Under the pieces are notes generated by a model. It had not been told where the DNA came from, made no database searches, and saw nothing but the letters and a program-made list of their open reading frames with translations. From assembly GCA_014804785.1 (NCBI GenBank), contig JAAUZD010000030.1:61723-125722 (forward strand): DNA of 64,000 nt, written 5' to 3'. The DNA comes from Lachnospiraceae bacterium (GTDB lineage: Bacteria > Bacillota > Clostridia > Lachnospirales > Lachnospiraceae). The position numbers and the translations under genes were made by a program. Shown here in pieces: positions 8,519 through 11,742 of the stretch (positions are counted from its first letter, which is position 1; the number at the start of each line of letters is the position of its first letter).

Positions 8519-8826
8519 GAGAGTCAGCAGCGCCCAGGCGGTAGGGCAGTTCCTACGATATGGCGAGTGAAAAAGCATTGCAGGACTTTATGGAAAGTGG
8601 TTAGAAGGACTTAGTATTCCATACAATACCCAGCAATGGGCGGACAGGACGTCCGACCAAGGCGTAACTTGGTCCATGGATGGACCAATACGCCGTTTGC
8701 GTCCTCATTGACAAACCCATCAAAGGAATACTTAGTCCTTCTTCCCACTGCACATAAGACCTGCAATGCTTTTTCACTTGCCATAGCGTAGGAACTGCCC
8801 TCCCGCCTGGGCGCTGCTGACTCTCC
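8519..8826. repeat. Foldback element A: about 100-bp inverted-repeat arms around a structured about 100-nt apical core
   Basis: Left arm gagagtcagcagcgcccaggcggtagggcagttcctacg...ggacttagtattcc is nearly the reverse complement of ggaatacttagtccttc...cgtaggaactgccctcccgcctgggcgctgctgactctcc. Confidence 0.92.
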
Positions 8827-10234: not shown

Positions 10235-10576
10235 GCTGTTCACTGTCATTTGGATAAGGGGCTGGACCGGCAGATGCGGTATCTTCTTGTACCGGGCTGA
10301 ACAAAAAACTGTGCGGAAACCTTATGGGAAGTGGTTAGAAGGATTTGGCATCCCTTTTGATGCACAGCAATCGACGGACAGGAGGTCCGGCGAAGGCATA
10401 ATTTGACCCATGGATGGGTCAATATGCCGCTTGCGTCCGGTATCTATATCTAAAAAAGGGATGCTTAATCCTTCTTACCACTGTACATAGGTTCCTGCAC
10501 AGTTTTTTGTTCAGCCCGGTACAAGAAGATACCGCATTTGCCGGTCCAGTCCCTTATTCAAATGACAGTGGACAGC
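10235..10576. repeat. Foldback element B: about 120-bp inverted-repeat arms around the same apical core as element A
   Basis: Left arm gctgttcactgtcatttggataaggggctggaccggcagatgcggtatcttcttgtaccgggctgaacaaaaaactgtgc... is nearly the reverse complement of ...gcacagttttttgttcagcccggtacaagaagataccgcatttgccggtccagtcccttattcaaatgacagtggacagc. Confidence 0.92.
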
Positions 10577-11410
10577 CTATTTTAAAGGGAGGCAGATATC
10601 TAATTCCATATAGCCGGAATCACTGTCTACTTTGCGGTAAATGTCAAATCCGCTGCGGTTGTCCAGGCATAGACCTGTCTGGGGCAGCCATACGGTAAAG
10701 AGGGTCTGGTAGGCAGCATAGATGTGTTTGCCCAGCCCCTTATAGGGATAAACCGCACATTTCCCGCCTTCTATGACACAGGTATTCGTAAGCGGGCAGT
10801 CCGAGTTTACGCTCATGCAGATATCATACAGGCAGCCGTCTATATCTGTTATAGCCGGATCATCGAAGGTGCGCTCAAAAAACAGAGTTTCTTTTGTAAC
10901 ATATTCCTGATATCGTCTGATAAAATCCTCCCATTGCCCGCTTAAGCTGCGGTAGCTTCCGATTCTGCGTTCATATAATACAAAATAGTCAGGCAGGGTC
11001 TTTATTGCAACTTTCTGATTGCACGTCTCAAAGGTTTCCATGGAAATCCGGGTATCATGATAAAAAGGATGCTGAATGGACGCCTGATGGATCCTCTTTC
11101 TGAAATGAACCGGGCTGGTCTGATATTGCTGTCTGAAAACCCAGCTATAGTTTGAGGGGCTATATCCGAAATCGTAACCGATATCCGTAACGGTTTTGCC
11201 TGGTTCAACTTTTAGCCGGAAAGCGCTCTGCTCCAGCTTCAGCCTTTTGATGAACGCGTAAACGCTTTCACCGGTTTCTTCCTTGAACATCCGATTAAAA
11301 TAATATTTGGAAAAATGGCACTCGGCTGCCACGTCATCTACTGACAAATCTTCGCCAAGGTGCTGTAAAATGTAGTCGATAGCATGATTGATAACTTCAT
11401 TTGTAATCAT
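10577..11410 (-). CDS. AraC family regulator with GyrI-like effector-binding domain
   Basis: HTH_18 ECHFSKYYFNRMFKEETGESVYAFIKRLKLEQSAF...IGYDFGYSPSNYSWVFRQQYQTSPVHFRK; C-terminal VAIKTLPDYFVLYERRIGSY. Confidence 0.88.
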   Translation of the reverse strand: MITNEVINHAIDYILQHLGEDLSVDDVAAECHFSKYYFNRMFKEETGESVYAFIKRLKLEQSAFRLKVEPGKTVTDIGYDFGYSPSNYSWVFRQQYQTSPVHFRKRIHQASIQHPFYHDTRISMETFETCNQKVAIKTLPDYFVLYERRIGSYRSLSGQWEDFIRRYQEYVTKETLFFERTFDDPAITDIDGCLYDICMSVNSDCPLTNTCVIEGGKCAVYPYKGLGKHIYAAYQTLFTVWLPQTGLCLDNRSGFDIYRKVDSDSGYMELDICLPLK

Positions 11411-11742
11411 AAAAGACGCTCCCTTAAGTGATAGCCATGTTTAGCGCGATGAATCCGCAGAATGGAATAATAACTCATTGGTTTTAAGAAAACGGTTATA
11501 GGACAGATATATTTACAGAACGCACGATTGTTCTTAAATGCAAAGGCAAGTATGATCCCAACCATATAATATAGCATATTGCCGCCAATGAAAAGCCAAA
11601 ACAGAACTTTTTCATACATGCTATGCTTTGGCGGCACATTTCCTGAAAACAGCCGTTTGTTGGGACGCTCTGAGAGAATAAATAATCCAACGTCGCCTAA
11701 ATATTTACCTATTCTGTGCGGACTACTGGCTCCCCCACGCAT
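11407..11742 (-). pseudogene. Truncated 4Fe-4S (NapH-like) membrane protein remnant
   Basis: NRAFCKYICPITVFLKPMSYYSILRI resembles the Cys motif of polyferredoxin membrane proteins but stops before any ferredoxin domain. Confidence 0.5.

What the first reader, a model, noticed from the sequence alone, without database searches (positions are those of the whole stretch)
8595..8740. Compensatory base-pair changes in the shared core of the MATE-flanking foldbacks
Apical hairpin A: GGCGTA-ac-TTGGTCCA-tgga-TGGACCAA-TACGCC. Hairpin B: GGCATA-at-TTGACCCA-tgga-TGGGTCAA-TATGCC. Three pairs change on both sides. The adjoining stem gaaggaCttagTatTcc/ggAatActtaGtccttc versus gaaggaTttggCatCcc/ggGatGcttaAtccttc shows three more. 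The loops TGGA and cGGACaggaNGTCCg stay constant. This argues for selection on structure as RNA or single-stranded DNA. Intra-palindrome gene conversion is an alternative that would also keep arms matched.
Basis: partly seen in the sequence, partly recalled or inferred. Interest (0 to 1): 0.8.

Follow-up and report, generated by a model that had tools for sequence, protein, structure and literature searches.

The report
TwoAYGGAY elements: self-correcting DNA palindromes
The paired changes are real, but they lie in two copies of a known repeat family filed as an RNA (TwoAYGGAY), and comparison of about 180 copies suggests that the two arms of a long DNA palindrome keep copying each other, rather than that an RNA shape is being preserved.

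Summary
Both foldbacks are copies of Rfam RF01731 (TwoAYGGAY; 113 and 120 bits). The genome, a gut Lachnospiraceae, carries 39 copies; congeners carry 0 to 78. Rfam models only the ~167-nt centre: 173 of 179 copies examined sit inside a longer palindrome, with a median of 77 nt (up to 200) of matched arm on each side.

Three tests point to DNA-level arm-to-arm copying rather than RNA selection. (1) No G-U tolerance: core stems have G-U 60 vs A-C 49; outer arms 185 vs 222. SRP RNA from the same genus, same pipeline, has 57 vs 6. The thin TPP control (7 vs 6) did not discriminate. (2) Between orthologous loci most arm differences are compensated (97 both-arm vs 48 one-arm), and half of the compensated ones are transversions. 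(3) In at least two orthologous loci the core is inverted relative to matching arms and flanks. Arm homogenisation plus spacer inversion is the published signature of template switching between inverted repeats.

Copies often sit just behind stop codons. Copy B's site is empty in three relatives. The conserved AYGGAY loops and a non-random core orientation are not explained by copying alone. Function and any mobiliser remain unknown.

The parts
8519..8588 (+). left outer arm of copy A (70 nt, 94% complementary to the right arm)
8589..8756 (+). core of copy A: TwoAYGGAY RF01731, 113.2 bits
8641..8655 (+). first apical hairpin of copy A, CGGACAGGACGTCCG (first AYGGAY-type loop); position approximate to a few bases
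8662..8695 (+). second apical hairpin of copy A, GGCGTAACTTGGTCCATGGATGGACCAATACGCC
8756..8825 (+). right outer arm of copy A; ends 5 nt from the MATE stop codon
8831..10153 (-). MATE transporter gene between the two copies
   Evidence: PF01554, E 2.8e-35
10235..10322 (+). left outer arm of copy B (88 nt, 93% complementary); contains the semi-conserved arm end CACTGTCATTTGGATAAGGGGC
10323..10489 (+). core of copy B: TwoAYGGAY RF01731, 119.6 bits
10489..10576 (+). right outer arm of copy B; ends at the stop codon of the AraC-type gene (10577-11410, -)

Best explanation
The feature is a pair of copies of the dispersed, palindromic TwoAYGGAY repeat. Each copy is a ~167-nt core (two hairpins with AYGGAY loops on a closing stem) inside 70-88 nt of matched outer arms, placed just behind a gene's stop codon. 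The compensatory changes arise mainly because the two arms of the palindrome template each other, most likely through strand switching at the replication fork (quasipalindrome template switching) or recombination between the arms. That turns a one-arm mutation into a matched pair and occasionally flips the core. Shown: family membership, long copy-specific arms, absence of G-U preference, compensated transversions, a symmetric indel, core inversions, and an empty site for copy B in three relatives. Inferred: the replication template-switch step itself, and that the conserved loops are read as folded DNA by an unknown factor that spread or maintains the element.
For: Family. Long arms in 173 of 179 copies. 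Core stems G-U 45 vs A-C 43 (type 1) and 15 vs 6 (type 2); SRP control 57 vs 6, (Fisher P 2e-7 for type 1 vs SRP). Outer arms G-U 185 vs A-C 222, and no preference on the presumed transcribed strand either: mRNA-strand wobble 100 vs 97, summed from the two orientation classes. Orthologous arms: 97 compensated (49 transitions, 48 transversions) vs 48 one-sided (17 G-U, 21 A-C, 10 other); compensated changes are richer in transversions than one-sided ones (P 0.001). Symmetric ~36-nt indel in both arms and two clear core inversions with flanks 91-95% identical: G000:C28:185886 vs G036:C25:62220 (core 161/165 identical when flipped, 125/180 in flank orientation) and G000:C4:80282 vs G036:C5:51714. 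Literature: template switching homogenises inverted-repeat arms and inverts the spacer (PMC8604942; arm homogenisation in E. coli, PMC7202029). Copy B site empty in G036, G015 and G004.
Against: Loop sequences and core shape are conserved across Clostridia, so some sequence-specific selection acts on the core, which copying alone does not explain. Core orientation is not random (17 of 18 neighbours under 1 kb are outward-facing; 54 vs 25 with the 3' side towards a stop codon), which frequent flipping would erode. A TPP riboswitch control did not discriminate in Watson-Crick-dominated pairs (7 vs 6), so the wobble contrast rests chiefly on one RNA, SRP. Type 2 cores lean weakly to G-U (15 vs 6). 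The transversion excess partly depends on including arms aligned at only 75-90% identity, where misalignment can create apparent double changes. Counts are over related copies, so P values overstate independence. No mutation was observed directly.
Confidence: 0.72

Rival explanations
1. Selection on an RNA fold: the motif is transcribed and compensatory changes are kept because the RNA structure matters (the Rfam view).
For: Strong covariation and conserved loops over a phylum. Weinberg 2010 rated it 'probably' an RNA (PMC2864571). The TPP riboswitch control also showed little G-U excess under the stricter filter (7 vs 6), so low G-U is not by itself proof against RNA.
Against: No G-U over A-C preference in type 1 core or in arms, on either strand. 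Compensated transversions are as common as transitions. Arms pair far beyond the Rfam core and differ from copy to copy. The core flips between orthologues. Weinberg 2010 rated cis-regulation 'probably not', although Rfam types it Cis-reg.
Confidence: 0.1
2. Selection on a folded single-stranded DNA hairpin (as for attC sites or REP/IS200 ends): a protein reads the cruciform or ssDNA hairpin, so both G-T and A-C mismatches are harmful and stems stay Watson-Crick.
For: Explains G-U equal to A-C, conserved loops and the chromosome-wide spread; stems in distant taxa are also nearly free of G-U (205 WC, 2 G-U, 2 A-C, 9 other).
Against: Does not by itself explain the symmetric indel, core inversion, or fast-evolving copy-specific outer arms that tolerate mismatches (616 over 13,694 arm positions). 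A Y1 transposase is absent from G015, which has 45 copies.
Confidence: 0.15
3. Bidirectional intrinsic terminator: the palindrome is kept because it ends transcription of the adjacent, often convergent, genes.
For: 83 of 172 testable copies lie within 60 nt of a stop codon (median 16 nt); some type 1 arms carry a T run near the core.
Against: T runs of 5 or more are in only 26 of 93 type 1 and 5 of 86 type 2 right arms; the simple terminator scan finds none at the two window elements, though its loop limit of 8 nt excludes such structures; pairing continues for tens of bases beyond the T run; mRNA-strand wobble shows no preference.
Confidence: 0.03

Closest known systems
TwoAYGGAY RNA motif (Rfam RF01731; Weinberg et al. 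2010, PMC2864571)
   Same: Both window foldbacks match over the full 168-position model well above the gathering score.
   Different: Rfam describes an RNA of type Cis-reg and stops at the core; here the core is embedded in copy-specific matched arms of up to 200 nt and the base changes do not behave like RNA covariation.
Quasipalindrome template-switch mutagenesis (PMC7202029, PMC8604942)
   Same: Arms of an inverted repeat become more alike and the spacer can invert; the transition/transversion ratio is lowered.
   Different: The cited work concerns short repeats and short spacers; here arms reach 200 nt and the inverted spacer is a ~165-nt structured core. It is a process, not a family.
REP/REPIN elements and IS200/IS605 ends mobilised by Y1 transposases
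   Same: Multicopy extragenic palindromes (general knowledge of REPs; papers listed were not read in detail).
   Different: Much longer; no Y1 transposase found in G015 or G031, which carry 45 and 11 copies.
MITE / foldback elements
   Same: Multicopy, non-coding, inverted-repeat arms, presence/absence between relatives.
   Different: No consistent target duplication found, no transposase with matching ends found, no near-identical copies.

Membership tests
TwoAYGGAY (RF01731) | covariance-model score above the curated gathering cut-off over the whole model | tested here: met
   113.2 and 119.6 bits against 43; model 1-168 of 168
TwoAYGGAY (RF01731) | two terminal loops of AYGGAY type | tested here: met
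   CATGGATG and CAGGANG-type loops in copies A and B
Structured RNA (general) | G-U pairs tolerated more than A-C mismatches on the functional strand | tested here: not met
   45 vs 43 (type 1), outer arms 185 vs 222; type 2 15 vs 6 leans weakly the RNA way; SRP control 57 vs 6; TPP control 7 vs 6 not informative
Structured RNA (general) | transcribed as a discrete or functional RNA | not testable with these tools
   no expression data held
Cis-regulatory RNA (Rfam type) | fixed orientation relative to a regulated gene | tested here: not met
   copies sit behind stop codons in both orientations (54 vs 25) and flip between orthologues
Quasipalindrome template switching | arm homogenisation | tested here: met
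   97 compensated vs 48 one-sided differences in 15 orthologous pairs
Quasipalindrome template switching | spacer inversion with conserved arms | tested here: met
   two clear cases
Quasipalindrome template switching | mutational events observed directly or dependent on replication genes | not testable with these tools
   needs experiment
REP / Y1-transposase elements | associated Y1 transposase in carrier genomes | tested here: not met
   PF01797 not found in G015 (45 copies) or G031 (11 copies); the only hit in G000 has an internal stop
MITE | insertion polymorphism between relatives | tested here: met
   copy B site empty in G036, G015, G004
MITE | target-site duplication | tested here: inconclusive
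   none at site B; a possible 8-bp GTTCAAGA/GTTCCAGA at G000:C28:185886

The most novel reading that the evidence does not exclude
A widespread Rfam 'RNA' family of Clostridia is really a DNA foldback element whose covariation signal is produced by arm-to-arm copying, so that an accepted covariation-based RNA call is a false positive of a definable kind, recognisable by the G-U versus A-C test.
Probability: 0.5. Interest if true: 0.75.

Novelty: new variant of a known kind. Interest (0 to 1): 0.55.

Why it matters
Covariation is the main evidence by which candidate structured RNAs are accepted. If palindromic DNA that corrects itself can imitate it, other families may be misfiled. Comparing G-U with A-C in the stems, on both strands and against known RNAs of the same genomes, is a cheap test that can be applied to every Rfam hairpin family, though it needs more than one good RNA control. 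The system also offers hundreds of natural palindromes with orthologues for measuring template switching over long arms in gut bacteria.

Tried and rejected
Y1 transposase as mobiliser: presence does not follow copy number. An autonomous parent with the arm-end motif: the pattern search found known copies, single half-arms and one core-less short hairpin, no transposase. Plasmid or phage carriage: no match. Recent burst: nearest paralogous cores are only 0.875 identical at the median in G000. TPP riboswitch as RNA control: in pairs whose commonest form is Watson-Crick it gave G-U 7 vs A-C 6, no better than TwoAYGGAY, and about half of its pairs never vary; with all pairs included it gave 32 vs 6. 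This was the first control run; SRP was run after it because TPP was uninformative, and both are reported. Terminator-like hairpins as a control gave 21 vs 11, only weakly informative. An apparent A-C excess in apical hairpins (25 vs 6) turned out to sit mostly at stem edges, many in related copies. tRNA control: too few tRNAs in the fetched loci. An early idea that insertion creates an inverted copy of the target (from site A in G036) was dropped once half-elements were found elsewhere.

Full report
What is there. They flank a MATE gene (PF01554) and lie next to its stop codon and that of an AraC-type gene.

The element is larger than the Rfam model. In each window copy the pairing continues outward for 70-88 nt. 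In the window's own genome (39 copies) and 15 congeners, 173 of 179 copies have outer arms of at least 30 nt, median 77, maximum 200. The arms are nearly perfect within a copy but differ from copy to copy, although a subset shares an arm end CAATGTCATTT. In distant Clostridia the arms are shorter, mostly 17-42 nt, and several of those scores are weak. The family is patchy: 0 to 78 copies within the genus and 52 of 399 genomes sampled in the phylum with a match at E 0.001, 34 over the curated cut-off.

Test 1, wobble. If an RNA is selected, G-U on the functional strand should be tolerated more than A-C. In the type 1 core (90 sequences, 41 pairs) there are 3506 Watson-Crick cells, 45 G-U and 43 A-C; in type 2, 1888, 15 and 6. 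In outer arms 185 and 222. Relative to the neighbouring gene's mRNA the arms again show no preference (100 vs 97, summed). Controls: the first run, the TPP riboswitch of the same genus, gives 7 vs 6, or 32 vs 6 with all pairs, so it does not discriminate under the stricter filter. Terminator-like hairpins give 21 vs 11. SRP RNA from the same genus, same pipeline, gives 57 vs 6, or 257 vs 6 with all pairs counted. The test therefore rests chiefly on SRP.

Test 2, spectrum of compensated changes. Fifteen orthologous element pairs with arms at least 75% identical show 97 compensated and 48 one-sided differences; compensated ones are half transversions (49 vs 48), one-sided ones mostly transitions (38 vs 10) (P 0.001). 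The 75% threshold was my choice and was applied once; pairs below it are printed and show the same predominance of compensated changes. RNA compensation through G-U should favour transitions. A lowered transition/transversion ratio is reported for template switching (PMC8604942). One pair shows an indel of about 36 nt present symmetrically in both arms.

Test 3, core inversion. At G000:C28:185886 and its orthologue G036:C25:62220 the flanks are about 91% identical and the arms match, but the core is 161/165 identical only when reversed. A second clear case is G000:C4:80282 vs G036:C5:51714; three further candidates are less certain because of neighbouring copies or weak flanks. Arm homogenisation and spacer inversion together are the described outcome of template switching between inverted repeats (PMC8604942; arm homogenisation in E. 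coli, PMC7202029). Homologous recombination between arms could also flip the core; the data do not separate the two.

Gain and loss. Copy B's site is empty in G036, G015 and G004. At copy A, G036 keeps only the right arm, probably a remnant after loss of the left arm and core; single arms without cores also occur elsewhere in G000. G000:C41:31560, which lacks matched arms, looks like a fusion of a neighbouring pair still seen in G036. No recent burst is visible.

What is not explained. The loops are conserved over the phylum, so something probably reads the core. Cores within 1 kb of each other are outward-facing in 17 of 18 cases, and the 3' side faces a stop codon 54 to 25 (open reading frames called by a simple script), which sits uneasily with frequent flipping. 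No mobiliser was found.

Analyses tried for the wobble question: RNAalifold-based counts on cores, loop-anchored hairpin counts, outer-arm counts, a split by gene orientation, and three RNA-type controls plus a tRNA attempt that yielded too few sequences; all are reported above or under Tried and rejected. Copies are related to each other, so counts are not independent events and P values are indicative only.

Noticed in passing
window 11660-11730 and L068:14880-15350: A second dispersed, self-complementary repeat family of about 380 nt with some 30 or more matches in G036 and no Rfam match; a shortened piece lies in the window (AATAAATAATCCAACGTCGCC at 11677-11697).
   Followed up: partly
all copies within 1 kb of each other: Neighbouring TwoAYGGAY cores are outward-facing in 17 of 18 cases, although cores flip between orthologues.
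   Followed up: partly
G000:C26:435499, C28:187449, C43:119596, C26:353788-353852: Single outer arms without a core, and one core-less short hairpin: likely remnants of elements.
   Followed up: partly
Rfam RF01731 entry versus PMC2864571: Rfam types the family Cis-reg, whereas the discovery paper's table rates cis-regulation as 'probably not'.
   Followed up: yes
G000:C43:146889 versus G004:C13:19143 and G009:C79:10793: The same locus holds a type 1 element in one species and a type 2 element in two others.
   Followed up: no
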